Of a stretch of 64,000 nucleotides of DNA, positions 1 through 58,588 are shown one piece after another (the first letter of the stretch is position 1; every line of letters begins with the position of its first letter). The notes below the pieces were generated by a model. It was not told the DNA's origin. It searched no databases and worked only from the letters and a program-made list of their open reading frames with translations. A program made the position numbers and the translations under genes. This stretch comes from Protonemura montana. Lineage: Eukaryota; Arthropoda; Insecta; Plecoptera; Nemouridae. The stretch covers positions 26,436,651-26,500,650 of the forward strand of contig OX387603.1 in assembly GCA_947568835.1 (NCBI GenBank), written 5' to 3'.

Positions 1-290
1 GCTATGCAAAGAACAACTAAACTTCCCGACGTTTCGTAACTTGTTCCGGTTACTTCTTCAAGGGTAAGAGTAGTCCTGACAATTTTCCAATAGCAAAATT
101 GTTAAAATTAATTGTTAACTAACACAATTTTCAGGACTGCTCTTACACTTGAAGAAGTAACAGGTACAAGTTACAAAATGTGGGGAAATTTAGTTGTTCT
201 TTACTTAGCATTCAAAACCCAGTTGAAATAGTTTTTGTCAAAACTAGTGCTAAGTTTACATCAAGTAGACATGAGTCTAAAAACAATCTA
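1..290. mobile_element. MITE copy A, cut by the window edge
   Basis: Bases 1-97 and 118-211 are imperfect inverted copies (GTTACTTCTTCAAG...TAAGAG against its reverse complement), forming a long hairpin. From 211 to about 290 the sequence runs on as TTAGCATTCAAAACCCAGTT to GTAGACATGAGTCTAAAAAC. The same terminal sequence, inverted, starts the copy at 43572. The left end lies outside the window. No coding capacity. Confidence 0.6.
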
Positions 291-14130: not shown

Positions 14131-14140
14131 GGTAGTAGCA
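14131..14140. repeat. Left 10-bp target duplication of the foldback element
   Basis: GGTAGTAGCA directly precedes the left arm and is repeated in the same orientation at 21899-21908 after the right arm. Confidence 0.8.
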
Positions 14141-15852
14141 GAGATAAAAGATAGGGAAGGGAGATACGTAGCCCAAGGCAGAGCAGGTGGGCTCAGGACT
14201 TTCTTAGTACTCATCGGTGTTACGGAATAGGAAAGCGGCGCTAGTAGTAGCAAACCGCTGTAGGTACCGCGGAATTCGAAAAAACCGTAGTGCATAAGAA
14301 CCGCACCACTGCGCTAGTGGTTCTTTGTACGAGCGGATACGCGCCGAGTTTAAAAGACCCGTAGTTCATGAAACCCAAGCCGCGCGCTAGAAGCACTTAC
14401 CAACGCGCGTAGCGCTGAGTTTGAATCGGGGAACATTTGATTTGATTTATTAGTTACAATTTGTATTCATACAGGTGGTAACGTTTTTTTTTTTAATTAA
14501 GAATATAGATAGTAAAATATAAGTAATTAATATTAATTATAATGATAACTATATTAATGATGATAAAAATAATAATTGATAACAATATTAATATTCACGA
14601 TAAAATAATCTTAGGAACTATGAACTTCTCTCAATTTCTCCGCTCGAGTAATAGACAACAGGCAAGGTGATGATTTGTTCACTTTAGCGACTCGGTTACT
14701 GTATCTGACATCTGTGCACTTGCTTGCCCGCTCTAAATGCTTACATTTTTTGATGTTCGGAATAACACTCGTTTTTCAATGACGTACAGCCTGAAATAAT
14801 TTCCCACGACCGTAATATGCGGTCATGGCTGTCAAAATGTTCATATCAGAGACTAAACCCGGTGCTGACTGCTGATACTGCAAGAAATTCCACAAATGTA
14901 GCTTTTTGATTTATAATTATGGCACTGGCTTATCTTAAATTATCAGCAAGTCGATTAAGAATTAATTTGTTGCGCCATTTCAAACACCGCGGAACTTTTG
15001 CTCCAACATCGACAACTATTGACTTTGCTGCTTACGACCACTCACGGTTAATTTGCTTAACTTATACAATGTAAGAGTGTGAATAGCTAGTTTGGAACGA
15101 AGATTAAAACAGGTGTATGCAAAAATATGGGAAACACGTGGTCGCGGGTGCAAACTTGATCGCTATCGATCGACGGCCATTTGAAATGAAAGGTCGAAAT
15201 TGTTGTTGTACCCAAAGAATACGTTAAAAAGGAAAACGTCAGATTTTCCATGGCAACTATTGACGCGGACACGTCAAGTTGCTCATGTTTAAATCTGAAT
15301 ATTCCCAACTGCAGTCATTAAAGACGGCATCGTTTTCATCTATAGCACTGAATTACTAGCTGTGCAAATAAATCACGCGATGATAGCAGCCCAAGGATGG
15401 CCGTGGCCGGGTGGATAGGTACGGTACGCACGGAAAGATAAATCATCCAGGGTGATTCCACCACATTTTCAACTACTGCTGAAATTGTAAAAAGTCAAGA
15501 TTGCACTTGATGGCGGTAATTCACTTTGTAAGTAACAATGACGATCGACAGCCCGGGTAGTGGAAAAGAATATACCTATGCCGGCTAGCCAAGTTATTTG
15601 ATAATTGTCGGAATCGAGCTTCTGACATTTTGAGGAATTGCATTTTGGTATTTTTAACGCCGACACAGCTCTCCAAGCAACGTCAGGTACATCGCCAGTT
15701 TTGACGCGGATATGACAAGTTTTGCAGATAAAGGTCTGAATTTTGCCGACTGTAGTAAACGATGCTATTGTTGTGGCAAAAACCACCCGGCGGCAGCTCG
15801 TCTGGGATGGTCGCGGCCCGACGAGCAGGTACGCAGGGGAAGGGTCGCAAAA

Positions 15853-16104
15853 ACTCAGGGATATTTCTCTACAATATCAACAGCTACTGATATTTTACGA
15901 AGACGAGAGTTGGGCGATACAAATTTCAGCTCGCATGGGTTTTTCTCGGCTGCTTGAATTGTTAGTCATTTAAATAATACTCATTTCGGTTCGCTGCTCG
16001 GGCCGGCAAATTTAATTTCACAGAGCATCGAATTTGAAGTGTTTTAGTTGAACAATTAGACGTTTGGAAGACCACGGATGATACTTAATTAAAATGACAC
16101 CCAG
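15853..16104 (+). repeat. 252-bp internal duplication, left arm, copy 1
   Basis: Starts ACTCAGGGATATTTCTCTAC and ends AAAATGACACCCAG. It appears identical to 16393-16644, exactly 540 bp downstream. Mirror copies lie in the right arm at 19944-20195 and 19404-19655. Confidence 0.9.
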
Positions 16105-16392
16105 GCCTTTTTTGAGGTCAGAAATGATGAGGCTGGCAAACACATACATATTTGCATAAACTTGAAAGGAACTCAGTTAATTCTATTTAGTTCCACTTAG
16201 TAGTTTGGAAAGATTTGATCAACTGTAGTTGACTTTTGTAGGCTAAAACTTGATGAAGGGAAAGACGACGATAAAGAGGGATCTCGGCCGGAGCTTGTGG
16301 GTCCAGCAGATAACAAGTTATTTGACAGGGATTTGCATAGTTTTTTTTTGCTGCGAAATTGAAGACGAGAGAAAGGTGGGATATTCAGGGAT

Positions 16393-16644
16393 ACTCAGGG
16401 ATATTTCTCTACAATATCAACAGCTACTGATATTTTACGAAGACGAGAGTTGGGCGATACAAATTTCAGCTCGCATGGGTTTTTCTCGGCTGCTTGAATT
16501 GTTAGTCATTTAAATAATACTCATTTCGGTTCGCTGCTCGGGCCGGCAAATTTAATTTCACAGAGCATCGAATTTGAAGTGTTTTAGTTGAACAATTAGA
16601 CGTTTGGAAGACCACGGATGATACTTAATTAAAATGACACCCAG
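16393..16644 (+). repeat. 252-bp internal duplication, left arm, copy 2
   Basis: Second direct copy of the block at 15853-16104. The sequences diverge immediately outside both edges. It contains a short ORF segment, but nothing indicates that it is translated. Confidence 0.9.
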
Positions 16645-17133
16645 TCAACCAAACGAGCAAAATGACCTGTTCTATCGACTACAGCAACTACTACAGTTCT
16701 AGGCCAGGTCAGGGCCGCTAACAAGAGAACGCATGGTAATCATTAATAAAAAGCAACACCCCTCACCACTGCCTGCAATAGCTGTGGACGCCCTTGATAA
16801 AATGGAAGCCTGCCCGCAGGCGTCAACCCGTCAAAGCTAAATAAAACAATAATTAACAATATTAAAACTTTCTATAACAGTTAATAGAATATTACCTCAT
16901 CATGTAATACAATATACAAATTATTAGTGGACAATTTTCAACAGATCATTTTCTCGTACCCAATTTGAGATTTCATTAGTTGGCAATTTATTTGTGTATG
17001 TATACTTCTCTTGTATCGTTTTGTATCGACTTACTTATTCTTGCTCTTTATCGACTTGCTAATAATTTAACATAAACATAGCAACATAGTACCGTGCAAG
17101 TTATTTGAAACGCAATGAGACATCTTGCTTGCA

Positions 17134-17345
17134 CCGACAGCGAGTCCGGGCGAGTCGCTCTGACTCGGGGAGACCCGTAGGGAGATTGGAAATAGAGATC
17201 GTGGACATTTTAAACGCAATGACCGTGCAAGTTGTCTCATTGCGTTTCAAATAAATATATTTTGGGTTCAATTTCCATGATCCCTATTTCCAATTTCCCT
17301 ATGGGTCTCCCCGAGTCAGAGCGACTCGCCCGGACTCGCTGTCGG
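17134..17345. repeat. 72-bp-arm hairpin inside the foldback core
   Basis: Arms 17134-17205 and 17274-17345 are near-perfect reverse complements (CCGACAGCGAGTCCGGGCGA and TCGCCCGGACTCGCTGTCGG at the ends), around a ~68-bp loop. The loop carries TGCAAGTTGTCTCATTGCGT, whose inverse lies just left of the hairpin (17107-17122), so the structure is nested. TACCGT occurs on both outer sides. It is either a small MITE inside the larger element or a recombination/replication structure. Confidence 0.75.
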
Positions 17346-19063
17346 TAGCTACCGTACAGAATTGGGCGCCGCGCACCGACGTACACGGACCTCGGTTTCA
17401 TTGAAACTAATTGATCGAGATAAGACTAACATTTCTAGAATCTTCATGTTTTAGGGTATCTAATGACATATTATCGCTCACTAAATTGTATTGACTGGTG
17501 AGATTTCGGCGTTGATCACGGGCGGAAGTTTTATACTCCTTTTAGCATGATTAAAAACAATCATTATATTTGGAATTAGATAAGTAAGATTTCTGAAAAC
17601 GTGTTATTCCCTCAAGATAAGTATTGTAGATGTAAAAAAAATTACGAATCACTCAATCTTTAACTTCTTCAAAAACCGAAGGCGACGACGCGAAGTTTGT
17701 TTTTCCGAATTTCCCACAAATTTCCCGCAGAATAATTGTTTGAGTATTTTATTAGTGACTCAGCAACCTAACACGTGGGAATTAAGCCATGCAAATAGAT
17801 TTGCTCTCATGTTGATTGTCACATTCCGTATGAACGCCATAATGGGCGAGGAGGGTAGAGGCCTAAATCAGAAGTTTGCTACAACTCGTTAAGAACCTTG
17901 TGAGGCCACCGTGTGATGATTTACCGAAAATTCTCCCATGGAATATCCTCAATAATTTACGAAAATCAAAATTTCATTAAAATAATCCAATATTTTGTTG
18001 AATTTCAGCCAATCCAGATTTATTAGGGAGTTTATAGCAAAATTCACATTAGACCATACCGTTGTACACCCCTAAACATCACCTAATAATAAGGCTTTTT
18101 CGATTTTCAATTTAAGACAAAAATCGTCGCTTGTTTATTTGTTATTAACTTACCGTACACGAAATTAGTTAGAGATTATGAACAATAAATAAGGGATGAA
18201 ACATCTTCTTAAAAACATTTGCGATGTCGTGAGCAGGGCAGTATAAGTTAGATTTCTTACCTGAAACATCTACATCTGTTTTCATACTAACTAATTCCGT
18301 GTCTACTGTAAGAGTGACACTTTAATTTCCTTCCAATTATGAAAAAATATGAAAATATTTCCTTCCAAAATATGAGTGGTAGGGCGCCTATTGCTTCACG
18401 TCTTGAATGCTACTGTTTTCAAATTTTTGTTTTCCTTTTCACGAGGAGAGGGGAAAGTAAAAGATTTAATAGAATTTGTATTCTAATGCAAAAAAAGTAG
18501 TATCATTCTTTGATGGCAATAACTTCTCGAATAAAAACATTGTATTTTCAAAATCGACAATTACTACCTAAACCAGAGCCTAAATTAAACTCACACAACA
18601 TAATAAGTCAGCCACCTAAACGCTGTATTTTGACCCAAGATGGTATTGCACACGGGATTGAAGATAAAACAAACAAGTCTTTAAAATGTAAAAATTATTG
18701 TCTTCCTCAAAACGGTGTTTGTTGCTTATAATATAATTTTCACAGCTTTCAGCTTGCGATTGGTTTTCATTGGTTTGGTTTATAAATCATCTTCGCTTTC
18801 TATCTTCAACATGATTGAAGATGTTGTGGCAGTTACTGCAGCAGCGACAAACTTCACGATTACAACTGCATGTTGTTCTAAAATCGTTCGAAGTTTTCTG
18901 CACTCGAGAGATATTGGAAATAGTTTTTCAGCAATAAATTTAGATTTGAAATGCGAGCATGTATATTCCGCAGCATTTACATAAACTTAGTTACATTTCT
19001 TGCGCTGCGCAGCCTGAGTATTTTTTTGTGACCAATATTTCTGCTGACAAACACGATGATGTC
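17346..19063. other. Remainder of the foldback core, no gene recognised
   Basis: AT-rich sequence with two short plus-strand ORFs (18510-18731 and 18715-18984). Neither has recognisable domains or transposase motifs. If the element once carried an enzyme gene, it is not visible here. Confidence 0.5.
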
Positions 19064-21898
19064 GCCAACTAATGAAATCTCAAATTGGGTACGAGAAAAT
19101 GATCTGTTGAAAATTGTCCACTAATAATTTGTATATTGTATTACATGATGAGGTAATATTCTATTAACTGTTATAGAAAGTTTTAATATTGTTAATTATT
19201 GTTTTATTTAGCTTTGACGGGTTGACGCCTGCGGGCAGGCTTCCATTTTATCAAGGGCGTCCACAGCTATTGCAGGCAGTGGTGAGGGGTGTTGCTTTTT
19301 ATTAATGATTACCATGCGTTCTCTTGTTAGCGGCCCTGACCTGGCCTAGAACTGTAGTAGTTGCTGTAGTCGATAGAACAGGTCATTTTGCTCGTTTGGT
19401 TGACTGGGTGTCATTTTAATTAAGTATCATCCGTGGTCTTCCAAACGTCTAATTGTTCAACTAAAACACTTCAAATTCGATGCTCTGTGAAATTAAATTT
19501 GCCGGCCCGAGCAGCGAACCGAAATGAGTATTATTTAAATGACTAACAATTCAAGCAGCCGAGAAAAACCCATGCGAGCTGAAATTTGTATCGCCCAACT
19601 CTCGTCTTCGTAAAATATCAGTAGCTGTTGATATTGTAGAGAAATATCCCTGAGTATCCCTGAATATCCCACCTTTCTCTCGTCTTCAATTTCGCAGCAA
19701 AAAAAAACTATGCAAATCCCTGTCAAATAACTTGTTATCTGCTGGACCCACAAGCTCCGGCCGAGATCCCTCTTTATCGTCGTCTTTCCCTTCATCAAGT
19801 TTTAGCCTACAAAAGTCAACTACAGTTGATCAAATCTTTCCAAACTACTAAGTGGAACTAAATAGAATTAACTGAGTTCCTTTCAAGTTTATGCAAATAT
19901 GTATGTGTTTGCCAGCCTCATCATTTCTGACCTCAAAAAAGGCCTGGGTGTCATTTTAATTAAGTATCATCCGTGGTCTTCCAAACGTCTAATTGTTCAA
20001 CTAAAACACTTCAAATTCGATGCTCTGTGAAATTAAATTTGCCGGCCCGAGCAGCGAACCGAAATGAGTATTATTTAAATGACTAACAATTCAAGCAGCC
20101 GAGAAAAACCCATGCGAGCTGAAATTTGTATCGCCCAACTCTCGTCTTCGTAAAATATCAGTAGCTGTTGATATTGTAGAGAAATATCCCTGAGTTTTTG
20201 CGACCCTTCCCCTGCGTACCTGCTCGTCGGGCCGCGACCATCCCAGACGAGCTGCCGCCGGGTGGTTTTTGCCACAACAATAGCATCGTTTACTACAGTC
20301 GGCAAAATTCAGACCTTTATCTGCAAAACTTGTCATATCCGCGTCAAAACTGGCGATGTACCTGACGTTGCTTGGAGAGCTGTGTCGGCGTTAAAAATAC
20401 CAAAATGCAATTCCTCAAAATGTCAGAAGCTCGATTCCGACAATTATCAAATAACTTGGCTAGCCGGCATAGGTATATTCTTTTCCACTACCCGGGCTGT
20501 CGATCGTCATTGTTACTTACAAAGTGAATTACCGCCATCAAGTGCAATCTTGACTTTTTACAATTTCAGCAGTAGTTGAAAATGTGGTGGAATCACCCTG
20601 GATGATTTATCTTTCCGTGCGTACCGTACCTATCCACCCGGCCACGGCCATCCTTGGGCTGCTATCATCGCGTGATTTATTTGCACAGCTAGTAATTCAG
20701 TGCTATAGATGAAAACGATGCCGTCTTTAATGACTGCAGTTGGGAATATTCAGATTTAAACATGAGCAACTTGACGTGTCCGCGTCAATAGTTGCCATGG
20801 AAAATCTGACGTTTTCCTTTTTAACGTATTCTTTGGGTACAACAACAATTTCGACCTTTCATTTCAAATGGCCGTCGATCGATAGCGATCAAGTTTGCAC
20901 CCGCGACCACGTGTTTCCCATATTTTTGCATACACCTGTTTTAATCTTCGTTCCAAACTAGCTATTCACACTCTTACATTGTATAAGTTAAGCAAATTAA
21001 CCGTGAGTGGTCGTAAGCAGCAAAGTCAATAGTTGTCGATGTTGGAGCAAAAGTTCCGCGGTGTTTGAAATGGCGCAACAAATTAATTCTTAATCGACTT
21101 GCTGATAATTTAAGATAAGCCAGTGCCATAATTATAAATCAAAAAGCTACATTTGTGGAATTTCTTGCAGTATCAGCAGTCAGCACCGGGTTTAGTCTCT
21201 GATATGAACATTTTGACAGCCATGACCGCATATTACGGTCGTGGGAAATTATTTCAGGCTGTACGTCATTGAAAAACGAGTGTTATTCCGAACATCAAAA
21301 AATGTAAGCATTTAGAGCGGGCAAGCAAGTGCACAGATGTCAGATACAGCAACCGAGTCGCTAAAGTGAACAAATCATCACCTTGCCTGTTGTCTATTAC
21401 TCGAGCGGAGAAATTGAGAGAAGTTCATAGTTCCTAAGATTATTTTATCGTGAATATTTATATTGTTATCAATTATTATTTTTATCATCATTAATAAAGT
21501 TATCATTATAATTAATATTAATTACTTATATTTTACTATCTATATTCTTAATTAAAAAAAAAAACGTTACCACCTGTATGAATACAAATTGTAACTAATA
21601 AATCAAATCAAATGTTCCCCGATTCAAACTCAGCGCTACGCGCGTTGGTAAGTGCTTCTAGCGCGCGGCTTGGGTTTCATGAACTACGGGTCTTTTAAAC
21701 TCGGCGCGTATCCGCTCGTACAAAGAACCACTAGCGCAGTGGTGCGGTTCTTATGCACTACGGTTTTTTCGAATTCCGCGGTACCTACAGCGGTTTGCTA
21801 CTACTAGCGCCGCTTTCCTATTCTGTAACACTAAGAAAGGCCCGAGCCCACCTGCTCTGCCTTGGGCTACGTATCTCCCTTCCCTATCTTTTATCTAT

Positions 21899-21908
21899 GG
21901 TAGTAGCA
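21899..21908. repeat. Right 10-bp target duplication of the foldback element
   Basis: GGTAGTAGCA, identical to 14131-14140 and in the same orientation. A 9-10 bp duplication is typical of Mutator-like/Foldback transposition. Confidence 0.8.
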
Positions 21909-41800: not shown

Positions 41801-44800
41801 TTCGTTTGTCTCGTCCTGAGCTCCTTAATTTCTGCTAGAATTGTGTTAAACATTGACCATTGGAAGACAAATGGGGAAAGAGTTAGAAGCTGTCAGTGAT
41901 TTTGTTTGCCAGATTTGCTTGTCAGGTTACATTGCCATTATGTTCCAGCCCGAGGAAGACTTACCTTCTGGGCTGTCAGATGAGCCACCCAAGTGCTACG
42001 TGGCTACGCAGGGTTGTCTGCCGGCTACCACCACACACTACTGGGACATGGTGTGGCAGGAGAACTCACGTGTTATCGTCATGACCACCAAGGAGATTGA
42101 ACGCGGCAAGGTAGGCTCGCTCAGCTGGTCTAATGTTAGACTCCGGGATCCAGCCCCGGCATCTGGTGTTCTAAGCCACATTAAAAAAAATTGAATTGAA
42201 ATATTTTCAATAAATCAACTAAATTTTGTCTATCAGCTATCTGTCTACTATTTACTAACAACCATTTATCAACAACCTATTCAAAGATAAACATTCACCC
42301 TTGAAAAGTGACAAGAATCCACAGAGCAAAGTTTAAAGTTAACTTCAGAGTTAAACAAAAAATCATCCAATATTAGAGGTTGTTTCTAGATTTTCAGGGG
42401 TTGTTACGATGGTGATAACAATTTCACCCCCAAATTTATGGAGGTCAAGTTTAAACTTGCTTTTTTTTGATCCTCTCTCAAGAAAAGTGACAAAAACCCA
42501 GCCTGTAGTTTTTACATGTAATGTAGAGGAAACCATAATTCTGTTCAGCTCGTCTTAACAAGCCTACATTTTCGAGTTCCTTTCAACGCTGAGCAGATTA
42601 GCTTCTGACCGAAATGGAGACCAGTCAGCCTTACTGGCAACATTGGTCATTGCCAACATTACCAACATTGCCAACATTGCTTTCACAGAACAAGTGCGTC
42701 CGCTACTGGCCAGAAGAAGGCCAATCCAAGGAGTACGGCAAGCTGACAGTCTGCAACATTCTCGAGTCCTCTACGGCAGATTACACTCTCCGAGAATTCA
42801 CGCTGGCCAAGGAAGGCTTTCCCAACGAGCGCAAAGTCTTCCACTACCACTTTCAGGTGAGCCGAGTCATTCCGTTTTGTAGCAGGCTTTCGAGTGGTTG
42901 GCACCGCTACAGTGTTGACTGGCTTTTAGGCATGGCCCGACCACGGTGTCCCTGCTGACCCTGGCTGCGTGCTGAACTTCCTCCACGATGTCAACGCCCG
43001 GCAGGAGTCTGTGCCCGAAGCTGGCCCGGTGGTCGTACATTGCAGCGCTGGTATCGGTCGCACAGGAACCTTCATCGTCATCGATATGATTCTGGACCAG
43101 ATCAAGCGGCAAGGTACGCTTACCACATAAAGTAAACCCGGCCAGCAACTTTCATATTTTGATGCTTTTTTATTTTTTTTTTATTTTTTTGCACTGTCTA
43201 ATTTCTTGGACCCTTGACAGGGTGCTACTAAAAGGAAACTAATGTCCTTTTGTTTATTTAAATTCATATGCTATAGCATTTTTATACTGGGTACCTAACA
43301 AATTTATTCCATTCTTTGATTTGCAATATTCTATTACTTATTACTTATACATGGCTATTTGATTAGTCTTGTTGCATAGTAATTTGTTAGAAAATACCAA
43401 GAAACTTGTTTAAATTTTGTTATCTGTTTCATCAGTCATCATTAGGCAGTGGAAAAAATGTGCTATGAAATCCACGGAATACTACATACTATTGTAACGG
43501 ACACTGTTCCAGTAACAAAGATATCCCTATTGCTTGCCAGGAGTTTCAGAAGAGTTTGTTAGCTATGATGGTTTTTAGACTCATGTCTACTTGATTTATC
43601 CTTAGCACTAGTTTTAAGAAAAACTATTTGAAATGGGTTTTGAATGCTAAGTAAAGGACAACTAAAGTTCCCTAATTTAGTAATTTAGTAGCTCTTTACT
43701 TAGCATTCAAAACCCATTTCAACTGGTTTTTGTTAGTTAGTCAGCTCTGTCAGCCTCTACGAAATGTGCCTCGAGTTGTGTCAACTAAGTCCTTGTGTGT
43801 CCCTGTGTGTAGGACTCGACTGCGAAATAGACATCCAGCGCACGATCCAGATGGTGCGTTCCCAGCGCTCCGGTATGGTGCAGACCGAGGCTCAGTATAA
43901 GTTTGTCTACCTGGCCGTACAGCACTACATCGAGACCGTCTCACAGCGAATGCAAGCCGAGCAGGTACGTCTCAAACCCATCGTCTCCACCGTGTACATA
44001 CCGCAAGCAGTCAAGCCAATGCGATCGCAGCCTTGGTTGGGGATCGTGTCACTTTTTCACAAGAGACAACAAACGTTATCTCGGTAAATTCCTGGGTTAA
44101 TCAATGTGATTTAGCGAAATAACGTTTGTGATCGCTAGCATAAAAGTTACACGATCGATACCCAGGTTGGCTTTGAGGGAACGTCTGCATTCCGTTGCTA
44201 GTTTGTGTTTGTCTGTACACAATCCACACATGCTTTGGACTGGGAGCAGCAAAATTACAAAACCATTTCCACTCACACTTGGCTGAAGAGGTCTCGCCCT
44301 GTCACTGTACATAACCTGAAAGCCGTCGGATGGTGCTAAATGCCGTCGGTACGGAGCTGCTTGTTGCGTTGCTGAGCGTGGGCGCCGGTGTCTTGCAGAA
44401 GAGCCTGCAGCTCGGCCGCGAGTACACGAACATCCGGTACTCGGCGGAGGTCGCCGCTGACCCGGCTGTGGCGGCCGCGAAGGGCCTGACGCTGACGCTG
44501 TCACGTTCCACCACCTCGCTGCCAACTTCGCCAAGCGGTCGCGACAACAAGCGCGGGCCCAGCCGTGCAACATCCGATGCACATCTGCCAAGGTACGGCT
44601 TTGTGCTGACACGCCGACTTCGAGGCTTGCATGGGCATCTCTCCCGGGCACATAATGCAGACATTTTCTTATCCCCATGAGCTCCAAGTTACCTCTACCA
44701 GTGAATTAAGTAGGATTATTAGCGTTGAGTGTAGGTTATAGGTAGAGTTTCAACGTCAATGTTACAGTCTCTGCGTGAAAGATGTCTACCTCACCGACAA

Positions 44801-45950
44801 AAATGCAGAGTACCGGAACGTCACGTTAAGTGGAGCCACTGTCGTATGAAATTTAATTTCGATAATTTTCGTAGGTTACTCGCTTTTTAATATCGTTACG
44901 TGTGTATCAATCGTTGAGGTAAACATTGATAGAGATTTTTTAAGCGTGAAAAGTCTCAAAAGCGAGTTAACCTACGAGAAATATCGAAATTAAAATTCAT
45001 ACGACAGTGGCTCCACTTAACGTGATGTTCCGGTACTCTGCATTTTTGTCGGTAAGGTAGTCATTTGGCGGCCATCTTTCACGCGGAGACTGTAACATTG
45101 ACGTTGTTTCTCTACCTATAACCTACGCTCAACGTTATTAGCTATTTCGAAACTACAAAAGTAATAAGATTACATAAAATGAGTTTAAAAGAATTAACAC
45201 GATGATACAGTTGACAAAATTAAAACACAGTTCTGCTATATCCATCTGAATCTGAGGGGTAGGGTGGTAACAAGGCTCTAATATTCTTCTGACAAATTTT
45301 ATTCAATTGCCAAATCTTTTTTTTTCTATTGAACTGAAGAAAGAAAATGTTAGTGAATGCGAACGTTGTTTTCAAACATTGGTTTACCACGATGCTATGT
45401 TTTCTTATATCAGTAACACCAAAGTCTTGAATAATCTTGCTACACCGCGCTACCATGACAACGTAACAACGAGGTAGCAAAATAACGTTGGCACAGCCTG
45501 GAGTAGCCATGGGTGGGAAAATATTTGTTTTACTGCCTGCTTTGCCACCTCCTGGCCCATCTTTTTTTTTTTAAGGAAAATGCAAGATACCTGCCAAGGA
45601 ATCTTGGAGGCTGGGTATCCTGGCACAGATGTGAGGAAGTTCCCTCTGGATTGGCAAAACATCTGTTTAACCTAACCTGCTCGACTCCCAATAGCTTTCT
45701 CTCCAACCTACACAGATGTGAAATGCTTGGGGATAATTTATTTGCTTATAGGCTTTGTTAAAGGTAAGATACGACTAGGACAAGAAAGTTTAAAATGTGC
45801 GTTGCTTGCCGCAGGCCGCCTGATGACCTCCCGCGTCAGATCTACGAGAACATTCCCCTCAAGGAGCGCAAACTGTCAGCCAACAGTTACAACATCGGGC
45901 CGCCCCCGAGCTTTGCTCCGCCCCCGCCGCCGCCCCCTCGCAAGACGTGA
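29877..45950 (+). CDS. csw: SHP2-type protein tyrosine phosphatase (corkscrew)
   Basis: Thirteen phase-consistent exons encode 631 aa: 29877-29890, 30264-30386, 30509-30703, 38022-38184, 39593-39769, 40803-40950, 41374-41453, 41949-42110, 42689-42856, 42930-43113, 43813-43964, 44399-44592, 45815-45950. The N-SH2 starts at MASRRWFHPN ([18 protein letters not shown]). The C-SH2 starts near residue 112 ([27 protein letters not shown]). The PTP domain starts near residue 240 ([20 protein letters not shown]) and includes TQGCLPATT, the WPD loop (AWPDHGVP) and the catalytic loop [13 protein letters not shown] (Cys about 448). The tail keeps two SHP2-type phospho-tyrosine sites (EYTNI, IYENI) and ends [16 protein letters not shown]. 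The family works downstream of receptor tyrosine kinases to promote Ras/MAPK signalling. The start of exon 41949 is the least certain; an upstream acceptor would add 14 residues in frame. The third intron is 7.3 kb. AATAAA lies at 47305. Confidence 0.96.
30704..38021. other. Large csw intron, 7.3 kb, between the two SH2 domains
   Basis: No exon, RNA gene or complete element is supported. It holds (TA)n near 31130, a (CA)n run near 32578 and several GC-richer patches (31300-31780, 33720-34060, 34180-34480) with short ORFs on both strands that match nothing recognised. An intron this long early in a signalling gene is a usual place for enhancers, but no specific sites were identified. Confidence 0.5.
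43572..43738. mobile_element. MITE copy B, same family as copy A, in a csw intron
   Basis: It begins TTTTTAGACTCATGTCTACT, the reverse complement of the right end of copy A, and has inverted arms around TTTTGAATGCTAAGTAAAG and CTTTACTTAGCATTCAAAA. The right side is shorter than expected, so this copy looks truncated. It lies in the csw intron between exons 42930-43113 and 43813-43964. Confidence 0.55.
44723..45134. mobile_element. 412-bp hairpin MITE in the last csw intron
   Basis: Arms of about 165 bp start CGTTGAGTGTAGGTTATAGG on the left and, inverted, CGTTGAGCGTAGGTTATAGG on the right. They pair over most of the element (CTCTGCATTTTTGTCGGT, CCACTGTCGTATG). A 7-bp direct repeat TTATTAG flanks it (44716-44722 and 45135-45141). 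A 7-8 bp duplication would suit hAT or P-type mobilisation; the family is unassigned. The arms are about 90% alike. Confidence 0.8.
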
Positions 45951-50843: not shown

Positions 50844-53800
50844 ATGGAGGCGTCGGACAAGAAGGCAACCAGAGAGCAATGCCAGCCAATGCTCGGCCCC
50901 AGGTATGGACCGGTCTGTTTGGGTCGGGGTGAGGGCTCGTTAGGCGGGACGATGCGTTTTGTCTGGAGGCTCGATGTCGGAGCCATGCACCGCGAGGACG
51001 GCACCGTCCGCTTGTCGCTCCAAGTATCGCTATCGGTCTGTTAGCCGGGATCCCCTAATTAGGCGCCTACCGTACGCCCGGTGATATCTACAGCCACTCA
51101 TTACGTCGTCGTCGCCCAACAAGATTATTATGGTGGAAATTGGGTCGGGCGGGCAGTCGTCGCAGTTGTGCCCTCCTGCCATGGCGGTCTGGACGGCGTC
51201 CTCGGACAACGTCACCTGGATGGTGGATGTACCACTAGAACGGCGCCTCATCGACGACCCCGAGTAAGTTTTCCGCCTCCTTTCGTCTCGTTTGGCGACG
51301 ACGAAGACGTGGTTTGCACAACCCAGTTAGGTGGGAAGGGTTGCGGGAAACTGGTCGTTTGTCCCCTTCGATTGAGTCTGTGGGAGTCCCCTTTTTAAAA
51401 CAATAAATCTAATCAAATCAAATCATGATCGGGGGACCTTTCCTGTGGTGCGATGAGAGATACATTCTTCTTCACATGTCTGGAGTGTCTTTGGTCCAGG
51501 TCCTATGGTCCACGTCAGTCAAAGCCAAAGGAGAATGTGATCCTCTATATCCCTTTGAACGACCGAGCTTCTTGTAGTGTTTGCGTTCCTCGAGTGTTTG
51601 TTAAACGACCGAGACTTGCCATTCTTCGGGCTTTAGTTTTAATCTTATCGCTTTGAAAGAACCGATTTCACCCCGAATATCAAGCGTTCTGCAACACGTC
51701 TTGGCCCTCTCACGAATCCAGCTGCATTCAGCAAACAGGCTCAGCGTCGTTCCGCGGTTGCGTGAGCGCGGTGCACTAATCAGCCGTTAATAAAATCTAA
51801 TTTACGAGCTGACATGAACTTGCGTTGTTTGCCTGCGTCGATTGCAAAACAAGGCACCGACTCGAGACACTTCCTGCCACATGCCTCGTTATCGCATTGT
51901 CATCGTATTGTCCGGAGAGACAGATCGGTGCAATTGTTTACCTACACACATAGGTCCCTGATGAAACAACCCGTCACAGTTTCAACATTCCCATGATCGG
52001 CGACAGGCAAATGAGAGCACACGAGACACGGCCAAAGAGACGGCAACACACGTCCCCTTGGAGCCACGTGCGACACTTAGCGCGCCCAACGCAACAGTTG
52101 AAACTCGCACAGGGCACGCTATACATATGAGGATGCACCGCGAAGGACGTCCGCGTCGATCGTCAAGGCAACGCGGTGACATTGACGAACCGTTAAGTCG
52201 TCGGACCGGCACTCAGTCGCATGCCGCCGTGTGTCATCGGCGTCGTTTTTAGCTCTCTAGCGTAGAACCGGTAGAACCCATGGCTGCTATGGGTGGGCGA
52301 TCGTCTAGGTAGGTGTCCAGCGTCTACAAGACTATCGATGTCTTCGGCTGGGCGGTCACCCTGTTCGTCTAACACTTGCTTTGAGTCTCACGGGTGCGTT
52401 CTGTTCTGAGGGGTGCAGCCCTGGCTACAATGGGGTACATGGCGAGCGGCTCGGCGGGAAGGCGGAGAAGCTGAACTTTGCTGACGTCGACCCCGACGCC
52501 GACGTCGTCAAGAAGTCGCTGAGGACGGCGCTGCCTCAGGTGGGTCTGTCTTTCTGCTTTGACGTGTTTCCTTGTCAAAGGAGTTCTTGCCATCAGGGTC
52601 ATCTTTATCACAATCCTGTTTCGTGGCTCAGAATTTGCCGCATTTCTTGCACATTGTTGATAGGGCCGCCCGTACAAATGATATCCCACCATTTAAAAGG
52701 GTTCTTTTAAAGATAATTTAAGATCCAATAAAAGTTTTTCTTCCTCCAAAATTTGGTACCAGATATGCCTATATCCCAGAAAAAATTATACAAAAACGAA
52801 CTCCTATTTACCTTTTTACAAAAGAAAATTAAACTATTTAACTAAACTACGAGTTTGATCTATGTACTAACAATTTGTTTGAAATTAACTCGGGGGTTTG
52901 GTACGTACTTACAGCAAACACATTCACAGAAATAGAACACAATTTCTCCGATTCTAAAGATGCCCACTAACTTCCCTGCGATCCATGCCACTCTCAATGC
53001 CAAGAGACGACGCAAGACATGGCCAAGGAAGTCAGATTAGTATCTTAGTAAAGCGGTGTCTGCGAGTACCAAGTTCCGCTACTGGTTCTTGGTCTCTTTT
53101 AGGTCCAACCAAACCCGAGTGCTATGCAACGCCCCCTCATTTCTCCACCTTTCCAGGTCCTGGCGACGTCGGCGAAGAACATATTGCTGCTGGGGTACGG
53201 CATGACCCTCGGCTTTCCGACCATCGTGATCCCCGCACTGAGCGCCGCCTCCCGTGGGGACGCCGTCGACGCCGACGTCATATCACTCGATCGAGACCAG
53301 ATCTCTTGGTTTAGTAAGTAGTCTGTGCACTGGTACCTGCTGTACCCACGATCTATTGAGTAATCAAATAGAGGTCATCGACACGATCTCATTCTATACC
53401 CATGGAACATAGGCTCTGTCAGGTGATCTCAGCATCTCCATGGCTACCAAACGTTGAATCTAACATTGAACCTCCTATGCTAGGCCATGATATACCTACG
53501 CGTGGTAACATAAGATAGCAGAATTGAGAAGCTCTGTCAGGTGATCTCAGCATCTCCATGGCTACCAAACGTTGAATCTAACATTAAACCTCCTATGCTA
53601 GGCCATGATACACCCGTGGTAACATAAGATAGCAGAATTGAGAAGCTCTGTCAGGCGATCTCAGCATCTCCATGGCTACCAAACGTTGTATCTACCATTG
53701 AACCTCTTATGCTAGGCTATGATGTACCCGTGGTAACATAAGATAGCAGAATTGAGGAGCTCTGTCAGTAAGATCTGAGCATCTCCATGGCTACCAAACG

Positions 53801-56800
53801 TTGAATCTTCCATTGAACCTCCTATGCTAGGCCATTATATATCCGTGGTAACATAAGATAGCATAATTGAGAAGCTCTGTCAGGCGATCTCATCATCTCC
53901 ATGGCTAACAAACGTTGAATCTACCGTTGAACCTCCTATGCTAGGCCATGATATACCCTTGGTAACATAAGATAGCAGAATTGAGAAGCTCTGTCAGGCG
54001 ATCTCAGCATCTCCATGGGTAACAAACGTTGAGTCTACCATTGAACCTCCTATGCTAGGCTATGAAATACCCGTGGTAACATAAGACAGCAGAATTGGGA
54101 AGCTCTGTCAAGCGATCTCAGTATCTCCATGGCTACCAAACGTTGAATCTACCATTAAACCTCCTATGCTAGGCCATGATATACCCGTGGTAACATAAGA
54201 TAGCAGAATTGAGAAGCTCTGTCAGGTTATCTCAGCATCTCCATGGCTACCAAACGTTGAATCTACCATTGAACCTCCTATGCTAGGCCATGATATACCC
54301 GTGGTAACATAAGATAGCAGAATTGAGAAGCTCTGTCAAGCGATCTCAGCATCTCCATGGCTAACAAACGTTGAGTCTACCATTGAACCTCTATGCTAGG
54401 CCATGATATACCCGTGGTAACATAAGATAGCAGAATTGGGAAGCTCTGTCAAGCAATCTCAGTATCTCCATGGCTACCAAACGTTGAATCTACCATTGAA
54501 CCTCCTATGCTTGGCCATGATATACCCGTGGTAACGTAAGATAGCAGAATTGAGAAGCTCTGTCAGGTGATAACAGCATCTCCATGGCTACCAAACGTTG
54601 AATCTACCATTGAACCTCCTATGCTTGGCCATGATATACCCGTGGTAACATAAGATAGCAAAATTGAGACGCTCTGTCAGGCGATCTCAGCATCTCCATG
54701 GCTAACAAACGTTGAATCTACCATTGAACCTCCTATGCTAGGCCATGATATACCCGTGGTAACATAAGATAGCAGAATTGAGACGCTCTGTCAGGCGATC
54801 TCAGCATCTCCATGGCTACCAAACGGTGAATCCACCATTGAACCTCCTATGCTAGGTCATGATATACCCGTGGTAACATAAGATAGCAGAATTGAGAAGC
54901 TCTGTCAGTCGATCTCAGCATCTCCATGGCTATGGTGAATTTTGCTGTTTAAAATCAGGTCACAAAAAAGGTGTTGAGATGTAATTGTTTTCAGATTCAT
55001 GTCTACTTTGATTATTTTTTAATTTTACTTTAATTTTACATTTATTTTGTTTACTTAGTTTTTGTCAATGTTGAGATGTGCTTTACGGCATTGCTCTGCG
55101 CTGAGGAGGTTTGCCTCGACGTTTCGACGAGACACGGCTTGTCATCTTCAGGAGAATTCCCTTTTTAGGGCGGCAAACCTCTTCGACACAGCAATACCGT
55201 ACGACACATCTGAACATCATACCACGGCTCTGAAAACAACCACGCGACCAACAAAAGCACCGAACGGTTTGTCGTGTTGGAAACACCGGTTCTCGTTAGA
55301 TCACCGAAGTTAAGCAACACTGCGCTGAGTCAGGTATTGGATGGGTGACCATCATACTCATGACCAGTTCTGTTCGGGACAGAGGTTGGAGGGATGAAAG
55401 TTAGTACAACAACTTCATTCGCCTTGCTTATCAACCTCTCGACAGCATGGATTTGTGGAGGAATCCTGCTGTTCGAGTTGTACCGTCCTTCGGAAGGGAC
55501 GTGAAGCCGGTGGTCCCCTTGATGCTTTTCGACAGGAGTAGGCTACGTGCCGGCACCGGGTTTCCCCTCCTCCATTCTAGGCTAGGTTAGGTTCATCATC
55601 ATCCTCATCATCATCCACTCATTCACCGACGCCATTAGACCAGTGCCGCATGGCCAGATGTCAAAACAGTGCGTCGTGAAACACCACAAATAATAATAGT
55701 ACAAACAAAAACGATGTTCTTACAAAAATACCAGCAACAGCAGCAATTTGTGCAGACCACCGTGAAAATGCTGCGACAAGCGAGCGCGACAAAAGTCTTC
55801 ACCACGGCCCCTATGTTGCAGGCAGCATCAACTTGGTATGCGTGCCGCTAGGCTGCTTGGCGTCGGGCGCTCTCACGGCCCCGTTGGGTCGCCGCAAAGC
55901 CATGATGTTTGTCAACCTCCCGTTCATCGCCGCCTGGTTGATATTCCACTTCGCCGACAGGGCCGCCATGCTCTACGCGAGTCTGGTGCTCACAGGACTC
56001 GCAGGGGGACTCTTGGAGGCGCCGGTTAGTGACCCCACGATCGGCAGTGAAGGGTGCTATTTTCTGCCCAAATTGCTACACCTGTTTGACCAAGAAGAGT
56101 CAGGAATTTCTGGTCATCGCCGATCATGTACATACTTACAGTTAACGTCCAACCGCCCTGCATGATTTGCAACGCAAGCGATTAAACGCCTCCCCCGTCC
56201 CGGTTCTAAGCTCAATCGGCCTCCCATGAAGACCCCTCGGGGCGACTTCCGAGGTCCATGGAGTTAGCTCTTCCAACTTCTACAGACCAACGTAGCACTC
56301 GTAGATTTTCAATTGCTGAATAAGTGATATTTGGGGGTAGTGAAAAAGTGTGAAAGAAAGGGTTGGTGTTACGGTGCGGGGAAATATGAAACGTTACTTC
56401 TTTAGGAGTGGGAAAAAGAGCCACATCCTGAAAAGACGCTCAATGAAGGGAGTGGGAAGGGCCGAGTCTCCTAAACCTAAACCTTAAAGCCTAAACCTAA
56501 CTTCAAACTTCACTATACCCCGACCCACGCTGACTCGAGGTGCCACCTTGTCGCAGGTGCTTACCTACGTGGCCGAGATCTCGCAGCCGCACCTGCGGGG
56601 CATGCTCTCGGCGACGTCGTCGATGAGCGTCATTCTCGGCGTGTTCATCCAGTTTCTGCTCGGCAGCCTCCTACCTTGGCGCACGGTGGCTGCCGTCAAC
56701 CTCTGCTTCCCCGTCGCGGCGCTCACGGCGCTGTTCTTCGTGCCAGAGAGCCCCTACTGGCTCGTCGGTGCGTACCCCAAACATTTCCGTCGTGATGCCC

Positions 56801-58588
56801 TCGCTAGGTCTGCAATAATCGCATGGACCGTGGCCCAAACCGTTGTGGGGAACGTTACCCACTAAAGTAGCACATTACCACCTTCTCATGTTCTCATTCA
56901 TAAACGGATTTATAAACTACTTTCAGAAGTACTATTTCACTACAGAAATTATAAAATGTGATAGTTTCAGGCTTGTGTGCCTAGAAAAAGCATAGCTTAT
57001 TAGAATCATGGATATATTTATTTACCCCCTAATAACAAGAATATGCTACTGCTTGAAAAAACATTAACTCTAAGACTGATATTCGTAATTTGTCGATCAT
57101 TCAAGGGCTATACAAAAAGATCCCTGTGATAAGAAAGTTCGGTCCGGTTTTTGGAACATTCTAATGCCATTTGCGCGTCGATTGAGGCACCGTGCACTTT
57201 GGCTTAAATATTTCATTGCTTTTAGAATCTCCAGTGATAGCTGGACACACTTTCCTGCGCATGCTTAGACTTTCTTAGGGCATCATGGAGTTAAAAGAGA
57301 GCCAGTGTTGCGTACGACGACACAAATTGTCGCAAGCAATCCCTAACAGCAACCGTACCTGATTGCCCCGTGCTGCCCGTCCAGGTAAACAACGCCTGGC
57401 CGAGGCTGAACGCTCGCTGTGCTGGCTGCGTGGCTGGGTCTCACCCTCCGAGGTGCGCGTCGAGCTGGCGACCATCGTGGCAAGTCTTCAGGCGTCGAGT
57501 GCTACGACGTCGACGCAGACGGCCACCTGGAGGCATTACGTGCATCGCACCTTCCTGCGACCCTACCTGCTCGTGTCGACCGCTTTCTTCATCGGCCACT
57601 TTGCCGGTGTCACCACGCTGCAGACGTTCGCCGTGACCATCTTCAAGGTAGGCCCCGACGGCTTGGGGACCCGTTCTCTGCCCTGGCGCACTGGCATGCC
57701 TTGCAGAATGCTGCAAAGCATGCGTCACTCCTGGGAGTGAACTGTTCTGCTCTGTTCAGGACCAAAAGCCGTGTCAGTAAACCCGCACTCCGAACCAGCA
57801 TCTTCTTGAAGATCTGAACCACTGCCCTTACGTTCCTGAGAGAGTTGACCTCTGTAATGGTCAGATAGGCGTGTGGCTTTCTGCGGATGGAATGTCTGCC
57901 TGCCATATGAGCCAAACCCCAGCTGTCCCCGCTATGTTGGCCTCGGAGAGGTTGTCACGTGAGCCGACACGTGTCTGATCTATGTGCCGTGCAGGAGCTG
58001 GGCACACCGACGGACGCCTACATCGCCACACTCTACCTGGGCCTGGTCGAGCTGGCCGGCAGCCTGCTGTGCGTGCTGCTCGTGCACTGGACGGGCAAAC
58101 GCCCTCTCAGCTTCGTCTCGCTCGCCGGCAACGGCGCGTGCTTCGCCGTCGTCGCCACTTACGCGCACCTCGCGACGCGTCCCGGCGCCGACGTCGCCGC
58201 CTTAGCGTGGGTACCGATGACCTTCCTGTTGCTCGCCGCCTTCCTCTCCCACATCGGCATCCGGTTGCTGCCGTGGATTCTCGTCGGCGAGGTGTTCCCA
58301 CAGCGCGTGCGTAACGTGTCGGCCGGTGCGTCCAGTTCCATCGGCTACATCTTCGGCTTCCTGGCAAACAAGACGTACGTGTACATTGTAGACGGCATGG
58401 CGCTGGCCGGTACGTTCTACCTCTACGCCAGCGTCAGCCTGCTAGGAGGCATCTTCCTCTACTGGTACATGCCGGAGACGGAGGGCCGGACGCTGGCTGA
58501 GATAGAAGAGCACTTTGAGGGGCACGTCGACCTGCGGCACGCCGGGACAGCAAGGCCAGTCAAGGAGATGGAGGGCACGAGACTCTAG
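50844..58588 (+). CDS. Facilitated trehalose/sugar transporter, Tret1-like (SLC2/MFS)
   Basis: Seven phase-consistent exons encode about 535 aa: 50844-50902, 52419-52539, 53157-53313, 55822-56024, 56557-56767, 57385-57647, 57995-58588. The TATA-linked start gives MEASDKKATREQCQPML. Membrane segments of the 12-TM major facilitator fold follow. Sugar-porter motifs include LLLGYGMTLGFPTIVIPAL, SWFSSI, GRRKAMMFVNLPFIAAWL, YVAEISQPHLRG, PESPYWLVG, SLCWLRGW, PWILVGEVFPQRVRN and the C-terminal PETEGRTLAEIEEHF. The order and motifs match arthropod Tret1-type carriers of the plasma membrane, which move trehalose or glucose down their gradient. Substrate is inferred; hexose specificity cannot be excluded. 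Two other first exons (49257, 51181) join in the same phase. Confidence 0.9.
51181..51263 (+). CDS. Candidate alternative first coding exon B of the transporter
   Basis: ATG in a strong context (tgccATGG) encodes MAVWTASSDNVTWMVDVPLE and seven more residues to a strong donor (GA|GTAAGT). It leaves in phase 2, as does exon 50844-50902, so either could precede exon 52419. It cannot follow exon 50844-50902 in frame: reading on from there meets a stop. It therefore acts as an alternative start if used. Confidence 0.5.
51264..52418. other. Transporter intron
   Basis: GC-moderate sequence. Short ORFs on both strands show no domains. No repeat or RNA gene recognised. Confidence 0.4.
53410..54932. 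repeat. 114-bp tandem satellite, about 13.4 copies
   Basis: The unit is AAGCTCTGTCAGGCGATCTC, AGCATCTCCATGGCTACCAA, ACGTTGAATCTACCATTGAA and so on, ending ATAGCAGAATTGAG. Unit starts (GCTCTGTCA) recur near 53413, 53531, 53645, 53759 and then every 113-114 bp to 54898. Copies differ by one to a few bases. The first unit has a 4-bp insertion. The array lies wholly in the intron between exons 53157-53313 and 55822-56024. Confidence 0.95.
55250..55695 (+). mobile_element. 5S-rRNA-derived SINE, copy 2
   Basis: The head at about 55258-55357 resembles 5S rRNA (CACCGGTTCTCGTTAGATCA, CCGAAGTTAAGCAACACTG, TATTGGATGGGTGACCATCA). The body (GGAGGGATGAAAGTTAGTAC ... GTTCGAGTTGTACCGTCCTT) is shared with the copy at 7437-7925. 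The tail is ACCACAAATAATAATAG. The 5S part has diverged and is fused to an unrelated body, so it is a SINE3-class element and not a 5S gene. It lies in a transporter intron. Confidence 0.87.
56025..56556. other. Transporter intron
   Basis: 532-bp intron with donor GTTAGT and acceptor TTGTCGCAG. It holds a short CCTAAACCTAAA-like run near 56471-56500. Nothing else is seen. Confidence 0.45.

What the first reader, a model, noticed from the sequence alone, without database searches (positions are those of the whole stretch)
14131..21908. 7.76-kb foldback element with 2.85-kb arms and a 10-bp target duplication
The arms pair with a constant coordinate sum over ~2.75 kb, are nearly identical, and the whole is bounded by GGTAGTAGCA in direct orientation. 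Inverted repeats this long are rare and genetically unstable. No transposase is visible, so it would depend on an unknown partner. The MuDR/Foldback placement follows from target-duplication size and arm length.
Basis: partly seen in the sequence, partly recalled or inferred. Interest (0 to 1): 0.78.

Follow-up and report, generated by a model that had tools for sequence, protein, structure and literature searches.

The report
P-type foldback jumping element, eight copies
The long inverted repeat is a real, recently mobile piece of DNA that carries no enzyme of its own and appears to jump the way fruit-fly P elements do, in an insect that is probably not a fly.

Summary
The inverted repeat is real: 14139-16984 against 19064-21899, 99.3% identical. 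It is one of eight dispersed copies in this 258-Mb genome, so not an assembly artefact. Read across copies, the target duplication is 7 bp (GTAGTAG), not 10; 7 of 7 copies with intact ends have perfect 7-bp duplications of the form NTNNNAN, the size and kind of target reported for Galileo (GTANTAC) and found here for transposase-bearing P elements. The genome also holds solitary 17-18-nt copies of the terminus between 7-bp repeats, as expected of scars from the 17-nt staggered cut of P transposases; a verified P family here leaves similar scars. Best explanation: a non-autonomous foldback element moved by a P-superfamily transposase. The MuDR/Foldback placement is not supported. The arms exchange sequence (some mutations, an insertion and a duplication are in both), except in the outer ~86 bp, where a 10-bp spacer and four bases keep the two ends different in all seven copies with intact ends. 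No transposase gene with these ends was found; the partner is unidentified and membership in Galileo is not claimed.

The parts
14132..14138 (+). left 7-bp target-site duplication GTAGTAG
14139..16984 (+). left arm; outermost 18 nt CAGAGATAAAAGATAGGG
14139..14155 (+). terminal 17 nt, the length left behind in solitary scars elsewhere in the genome
14207..14216 (+). 10-bp spacer present only in the left end (placement ambiguous by a base or two); the right end lacks it in all 7 copies with intact ends
14431..14622 (+). 192-bp AT-rich dispersed repeat inserted in the left arm; absent from both arms of L015
15853..16104 (+). 252-bp direct repeat, first copy in left arm
16393..16644 (+). 252-bp direct repeat, second copy in left arm (540-bp period; the extra unit is missing from some copies)
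16985..19063 (.). central 2,079 bp without long open frames; 0-4 differences in 2,046 aligned positions among the seven young copies; holds an imperfect palindrome 17133-17346 and a ~540-bp dispersed repeat
19064..21899 (-). right arm; outermost 18 nt (read inward) CATAGATAAAAGATAGGG; carries the 252-bp repeats at 19404-19655 and 19944-20195
21426..21617 (-). the same 192-bp insert in the right arm (mirror position, computed from the arm alignment)
21900..21906 (+). right 7-bp target-site duplication GTAGTAG

Best explanation
A non-autonomous foldback transposon that moves by cut-and-paste, driven in trans by a P-superfamily transposase. Shown: a multi-copy, recently dispersed element with perfect 7-bp duplications; a target preference like that of P elements in the same genome; solitary 17-18-nt terminal sequences between 7-bp repeats; arms that exchange sequence within a copy while their outer ~86 bp stay different. 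Inferred: these solitary ends are scars of 17-nt staggered cuts at the ends of this family and of a close relative; the arms are homogenised when the break left by excision is refilled and synthesis switches between arms; the 10-bp difference between the two ends (about 69-78 bp in) matters to the transposase, as the unequal spacing of P-element ends may. The partner gene was not identified.
For: Duplications: 7 of 7 copies with intact ends have identical 7-bp flanks; all 7 fit NTNNNAN against a window background of 8.2%, and so do 4 of 5 P-element duplications read here. Galileo: 7 bp, GTANTAC (PMC4168063, passages). P elements in this genome: 138 PF21787 matches; one family with an intact 1072-aa frame carrying THAP, HTH, RNaseH and GTP-binding domains, inverted ends CGTTGAGTGTGCAT and duplication GTATTAC; four further elements with that end, each with a perfect 7-bp duplication. 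Scars: of the 54 solitary places within 2 mismatches of the terminus 9 have an exact 7-bp repeat, 10 have at best 6 of 7 and 35 neither; control positions give 0.70% and 7.8%. Of the 15 with an exact 17-mer CAKAGATAAARGATAGG, 7 have exact repeats, 4 have 6 of 7 (all four beside a second, inverted piece of end, by eye), 4 neither. Solitary ends of the verified P family: 3 of 10 exact, 5 of 10 with 6 of 7, 2 of 10 neither (an 11th place, L106, is by eye a truncated element and was left out). P transposase cuts 17 bp inside the end (PMC7776569, passages). Arm exchange. End asymmetry; compare.
Against: No transposase gene with these ends was found. Of the 71 end-like sites, P-transposase matches within 60 kb were a 60-aa fragment 1.1 kb from copy L010 and matches 32 and 43 kb from two other sites; the last is an exact G-variant 17-mer, too far off to be one element of usual size. 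No facing pair of G-variant ends was found among the exact matches except one 5 bp apart. The P family with known ends has different ends from the foldback. Most scars carry G at nt 11 where the foldback has A, so they come mostly from a relative. The searches that chose the scar places enforce part of the conservation through nt 17; only the loss of conservation from nt 18 on is free of that. 4 of the 15 exact 17-mers show no repeat. An intact MULE frame lies 2.4 kb from copy L015, outside that copy's 7-bp repeat.
Confidence: 0.85

Rival explanations
1. A MuDR/Foldback (Mutator-superfamily) foldback element, mobilised by a MULE transposase.
For: 54 MULE-domain matches in the genome, the best an intact 548-aa frame 2.4 kb from copy L015. 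Foldback architecture with long arms is known in that superfamily (recalled; the Tm1 paper PMC3169594 was seen only in a search listing).
Against: Duplication 7 bp in 7 of 7 copies, not the 8-10 bp of MuDR (recalled); solitary 17-18-nt ends and GTANTAC-like targets fit P; the MULE near L015 lies outside that copy's 7-bp repeat, and no listed MULE match falls inside a copy.
Confidence: 0.07
2. A hAT-like or other DNA-transposon foldback (CAGAG ends, and T at position 2 and A at the last but one position of the duplication, are seen in hAT elements).
For: CAGAG start and NT...AN duplications resemble hAT (recalled).
Against: hAT duplications are 8 bp (recalled), here 7; the other end is CATAG; hAT footprints are short, not 17-nt single ends (recalled). 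No hAT family search was run.
Confidence: 0.04
3. An inverted duplication of ordinary sequence or an assembly artefact.
For: One genome assembly only; no reads available.
Against: Eight copies at eight places on four contigs (C1, C2, C11, C16), each with its own flanks; 7 of 7 intact copies with perfect 7-bp duplications.
Confidence: 0.01
4. The arms are alike only because the foldback formed recently by one inverted duplication, not because they exchange sequence.
For: High arm identity in every copy; 6 of the 10 single-copy arm changes between positions 90 and 1733 are in one arm only.
Against: The other 4 of 10 are at mirror positions in both arms (L014 at 223, 374, 750; L010 at 949). Between the same positions L015 differs from the other seven at 10 sites, in both arms at 9 of them. 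A 192-bp insert is in both arms of seven copies and in neither arm of L015.
Confidence: 0.06

Closest known systems
Galileo (Drosophila, P superfamily)
   Same: Long, internally repeated arms; 7-bp duplications with a palindromic GTANTAC-like preference; arms that extend by duplication and take in other repeats (PMC4168063 and PMC3573991, passages).
   Different: The host here is probably not a dipteran; no Galileo transposase or end sequence was compared; none of the 7 duplications is exactly GTANTAC.
P element of Drosophila and the P families of this genome
   Same: Scar type, 7-bp duplication and target motif of the local P family; unequal two ends, as in the fly P element (PMC7776569, section read).
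   Different: The fly P element makes 8-bp duplications and has 31-bp inverted repeats; the local P family whose ends I read has other ends.
MuDR/Foldback, including Drosophila FB
   Same: Foldback shape.
   Different: 7-bp duplication and P-type scars.
Tetris (Drosophila virilis foldback; PMC4079207, search listings only)
   Same: A foldback with relatives beside tandem arrays: two one-armed pieces here adjoin 91-bp arrays.
   Different: The arrays lie beside one-armed pieces near contig ends, not inside the seven full copies.

Membership tests
P superfamily (as a non-autonomous substrate) | 7- or 8-bp target-site duplication | tested here: met
   7 of 7 copies with intact ends, 7 bp
P superfamily (as a non-autonomous substrate) | cleavage 17 nt inside the end, leaving scars of up to about 17 nt | tested here: met
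   Indirect, from scars: 7 of 15 exact-17-mer solitary places with exact 7-bp repeats, 4 with 6 of 7, 4 neither; similar scars from a verified P family. No cleavage assay.
P superfamily (as a non-autonomous substrate) | ends shared with an element that encodes a P transposase | tested here: inconclusive
   none found; ends more than 2 mismatches away were not covered, 35 of 135 places were not listed, and 119 of 138 PF21787 rows were compared (the other 19 lie beside those)
P superfamily (as a non-autonomous substrate) | encodes a THAP/RNaseH transposase | tested here: not met
   no frame over 135 aa, no PF21787 match in a copy; expected of a non-autonomous element, so the claim made is 'works as a P-type substrate'
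Galileo | 7-bp duplication, target consensus GTANTAC | tested here: met
   length met in 7 of 7; preference NTNNNAN 7 of 7, exact GTANTAC 0 of 7
Galileo | long, internally repeated terminal inverted repeats | tested here: met
   2.85-kb arms with a 252-bp direct repeat
Galileo | conserved terminal ~40 bp of Galileo and a Galileo-clade transposase | not tested
   no Galileo sequence was held; membership in Galileo is not claimed
MuDR/Foldback | 8-10-bp target-site duplication (recalled) | tested here: not met
   7 bp
MuDR/Foldback | MULE transposase in an element with the same ends | tested here: inconclusive
   54 MULE matches, none inside a copy; one 2.4 kb outside L015 whose element ends could not be read

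The most novel reading that the evidence does not exclude
P-type transposases may demand two unlike ends, as V(D)J recombinase demands 12/23 spacers, and this family shows it in nature: exchange between arms erases differences over ~2.7 kb, yet a 10-bp spacer and four bases in the outer ~86 bp stay end-specific in all seven copies with intact ends, while the one copy that lost its termini (L015) is alike there in both arms.
Probability: 0.25. Interest if true: 0.68.

Novelty: new member of a known kind. Interest (0 to 1): 0.5.

Why it matters
In the search listings I obtained (one search was swamped by unrelated papers) long-armed P-superfamily elements are described from Drosophilidae; one in another insect order would widen the range in which such elements could drive inversions. 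This genome holds scars, young copies and transposase-bearing P relatives side by side. Arms that exchange sequence except at the outer ends make the question whether P-type transposases need asymmetric ends directly testable.

Tried and rejected
MuDR placement: set aside on duplication size and scars. Coding capacity of the element: four of the 28 listed frames of the element and its left flank, plus one of L016, scanned against Pfam; two weak hits far under the cut-off. Autonomous partner: sought by PF21787 and PF12017 searches, by distance of end-like sites to transposases, by arm homology and by a wider end pattern; not found. L016 and L017, which carry one arm and then a different interior, were first taken for a longer, possibly autonomous form; arm pieces recurring at about 150-190-kb spacing near contig ends make subtelomeric repeat units the better reading; their right ends were not reached. 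The 997-aa P element L102 showed no inverted ends within 5.2 kb. The TTAGG search was first read as telomeres; its listed places lie inside C1, and the contig ends I then looked at carry another repeat. No comparison with other species was possible: the tool states that this genome has no relatives in the collection.
Full report
Observation. The window is G000:C2:26436651-26500650 of a 258-Mb assembly in 34 contigs. Self-comparison gives arms 14133-16984 / 21905-19064 at 99.33% over 2,852 bp with 10 gap bases, and GGTAGTAGCA at 14131 and 21899. Searching the genome with the left end and with the centre gives seven further copies: L009 (C16), L010, L011 and L014 (C2), L012 and L013 (C1) and L015 (C11). 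Those two searches score only their best candidates (40 of 84 and 40 of 468), but the end pattern lists all 71 sites within two mismatches, among them seven facing pairs of ends at 6.7-8.4 kb: the seven copies with intact ends.

Duplication size. The junctions of the seven show termini CAGAGATAAAAGATAGGG at one end and CATAGATAAAAGATAGGG at the other in 7 of 7, flanked by perfect 7-bp repeats: GTAGTAG (window), CTAGTAG, GTTCTAT, ATAATAT, CTTCTAC, CTTGCAG, GTATAAC. The element is 14139-21899. All seven duplications have T at position 2 and A at position 6, against 8.2% of 7-mers in the window. The eighth copy, L015, has lost 13 nt near one end and 19 nt at the other but has a 7-bp repeat GCTATAT outside, which does not fit NTNNNAN (read by eye).

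Age. The seven copies differ from one another at 0-4 of 2,046 central positions, and from L015 at 32-34 of 2,036. They are young and descend from one foldback.

What moves it. The genome is rich in P-element transposases: 138 matches to PF21787 (150 of 170 candidates scored), among them multi-copy open frames of 1072, 1019 and 997 aa. L061, with 1072 aa, has THAP, HTH, RNaseH-N, GTP-binding and RNaseH-C domains, 75-bp inverted ends at 93% and a 7-bp duplication GTATTAC. The pattern CGTTGAGTGTGCATATAG finds 36 matches: 12 facing pairs and 12 solitary hits at 11 places. I fetched both junctions of four of the other 11 pairs (7.8, 6.4, 6.5 and 3.3 kb); all four have perfect 7-bp duplications. Of the five P duplications 4 fit NTNNNAN; ACAATAT does not. 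The fly literature gives Galileo, a P-superfamily foldback, 7-bp duplications with consensus GTANTAC, with three 8-bp cases (PMC4168063, passages), and P transposase a cut 17 bp inside the element end (PMC7776569, passages).

Scars. Of the 71 sites, 14 are ends of the seven copies and two are the single ends of L016 and L017; the other 55 hits lie at 54 places, all of whose flanks I read. The reversed-pattern control gives 29 hits, so perhaps half of the 54 are chance. By one rule for all: 9 of 54 have an exact 7-bp repeat 10-45 nt on, 10 have at best 6 of 7, 35 neither; 37,520 control positions in 14 of these loci give 0.70% and 7.8%, that is 0.4 and 4 expected. Among the 15 places with an exact 17-mer CAKAGATAAARGATAGG, 7 have exact repeats (L034, L035, L049, L052, L054, L057, L069), 4 have 6 of 7 directly beside a second, inverted piece of end (L053, L067, L071, L079; the second piece seen by eye) and 4 neither (L045, L050, L070, L077). 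The exact repeats start 17 nt (L049, L055) or 18 nt (L035, L052, L054) into the end, or further on where filler or a second piece of end intervenes (L034, L057, L064, L069). In the 11 with G at position 11 the sequence varies from nt 18 on; conservation up to nt 17 is partly enforced by the search. The transposase-bearing P family serves as positive control: of its 11 solitary places one (L106) is by eye a truncated element; of the other 10, 3 have exact 7-bp repeats, 5 have 6 of 7 (L105, L108, L110, L112, L113) and 2 neither, several with both ends facing each other. This is what refilled and rejoined 17-nt overhangs would leave.

Partner. I compared 119 of the 138 PF21787 rows (the other 19 lie beside those) with the 71 sites: within 60 kb there are only a 60-aa fragment 1.1 kb from L010, a match 32 kb from a two-mismatch site on C3, and a match 43 kb from an exact G-variant 17-mer on C16. 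No facing pair of G-variant ends exists among the exact matches except one 5 bp apart, which looks like a scar itself (L079); 35 of the 135 one-mismatch-or-better matches were not listed. So the close relative that left most scars is either gone from this assembly or has changed ends. 54 MULE matches exist, one 2.4 kb from L015; none lies in a copy.

Arms. Of 2,836 mirror pairs in the window copy 7 differ. Differences shared by all seven copies are at positions 3, 57, 60 and 86 and a 10-bp indel near 69-78; none lies further in. Between positions 90 and 1733 (further in, one arm is missing or realigned in several copies, and those sites were left out), changes found in one of the seven copies are at mirror positions in both arms in 4 of 10 cases (L014 223, 374, 750; L010 949) and in one arm in 6 of 10 (L014 508, L010 1733, window copy 560, L013 463, 465, 474); two more (413, 451) are shared by the left arms of the window copy and L010. 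In the same stretch L015 differs from the other seven at 201, 242, 259, 987, 1068, 1074, 1202, 1389, 1552 and 1697, in both arms at 9 of these 10. A 192-bp AT-rich insert, a dispersed repeat with 11 other places at 88-97% and two partial ones at 85%, is in both arms of seven copies and in neither arm of L015. By alignment gaps the 540-bp duplication is in both arms of the window copy, L011 and L014, in one arm of L013 and in neither of L009, L010, L012 and L015; L012 has a further insert of about 290 bp in one arm only. Sequence thus passes between the arms of a copy, though not always. I infer that this happens during refilling of the gap left by excision; breaks after excision are among the causes suggested for Galileo arm extension (PMC3573991, passage).

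Ends. The outer ~86 bp escape this exchange. There the two ends differ by a 10-bp spacer at about 69-78 bp, in 7 of 7 copies; in L015, whose termini are damaged, both arms carry the spacer and agree with each other. In the fly P element the spacing between terminal repeat and transposase site is 9 and 21 bp at the two ends, likened to the 12/23 signals of V(D)J recombination (PMC7776569, section read), and the first THAP site of Galileo is about 70 bp from the end (PMC3688188, passages). That the asymmetry is held by selection is inference; that exchange simply does not reach the outermost bases is the plain alternative, and L015 is a single case of older descent.

Host. ZAD-like and C2H2 zinc-finger frames (L021; recognised by eye) suggest an insect. 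Two of five contig ends looked at (C1 right, C11 right) are pure (TTTGG)n; on C1 the array begins by 33,120,494, about 2.2 kb from the end. A short telomere repeat argues against a dipteran (loss of telomerase in Diptera: PMC9693754, passages). TTTGG is named as a telomere motif of Lachnaia leaf beetles in a reference title (seen in PMC12287714), so a beetle is possible, no more. TTAGG arrays are also abundant (15,571 matches against 1 in the control), but the 100 places listed lie inside C1.

Noticed in passing
G000 C1 and C11 right ends (L123, L126): The contigs end in pure (TTTGG)n, about 2.2 kb on C1: a probable non-canonical telomere repeat, beside abundant TTAGG arrays whose listed places lie inside C1. 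Three other contig ends looked at carry other sequence.
   Followed up: partly
L016 (C11:17738321), L017 (C14:12606671) and C11:17887919, 18056943, 18244659, 18423230; C14:12774260; C5:332152; C12:408114; C13:475907: A ~735-bp piece of the foldback arm recurs at 98-99% identity near contig ends, at about 150-190-kb spacing on C11 and C14: subtelomeric repeat units may have taken in (or given) arm sequence; L016 and L017 adjoin 91-bp tandem arrays of 55 and 22 units.
   Followed up: partly
L015 (C11:4497189-4503508): Both termini are trimmed (13 and 19 nt lost) inside a preserved 7-bp repeat, as if an excision had been started and the ends rejoined.
   Followed up: partly
L056, L064, L068, L072, L073: A second set of end-like places, CATAGAAAAARGATAGG; L064 has an exact 7-bp repeat, L056 and L068 6 of 7: perhaps scars of another related family.
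   Followed up: partly
C5:286785, 296555, 442546, 452317 and others: Many copies of CAGAGATAAAGGATAGC, one base from the scar sequence, several near contig ends.
   Followed up: no
C11:4505873-4506154: Intact 548-aa MULE open frame 2.4 kb from foldback copy L015.
   Followed up: no
window 53413-54932: Tandem array with a period of about 114 bp, about 13 units, roughly 92-94% alike (self-comparison).
   Followed up: no
window 1-209, 43615-43735, 44042-44156, 44717-45140: Imperfect palindromes of 115-424 bp (74-84%), some related to each other: probably small inverted-repeat elements.
   Followed up: no
window 57911-58588: Sugar transporter gene fragment (PF00083, E 1.7e-27).
   Followed up: no
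C15:3.25-3.40 Mb: Eleven arm fragments at 80-81% identity recur along this stretch, which also holds two 1019-aa P elements; the one part read (L021) carries zinc-finger frames.
   Followed up: partly
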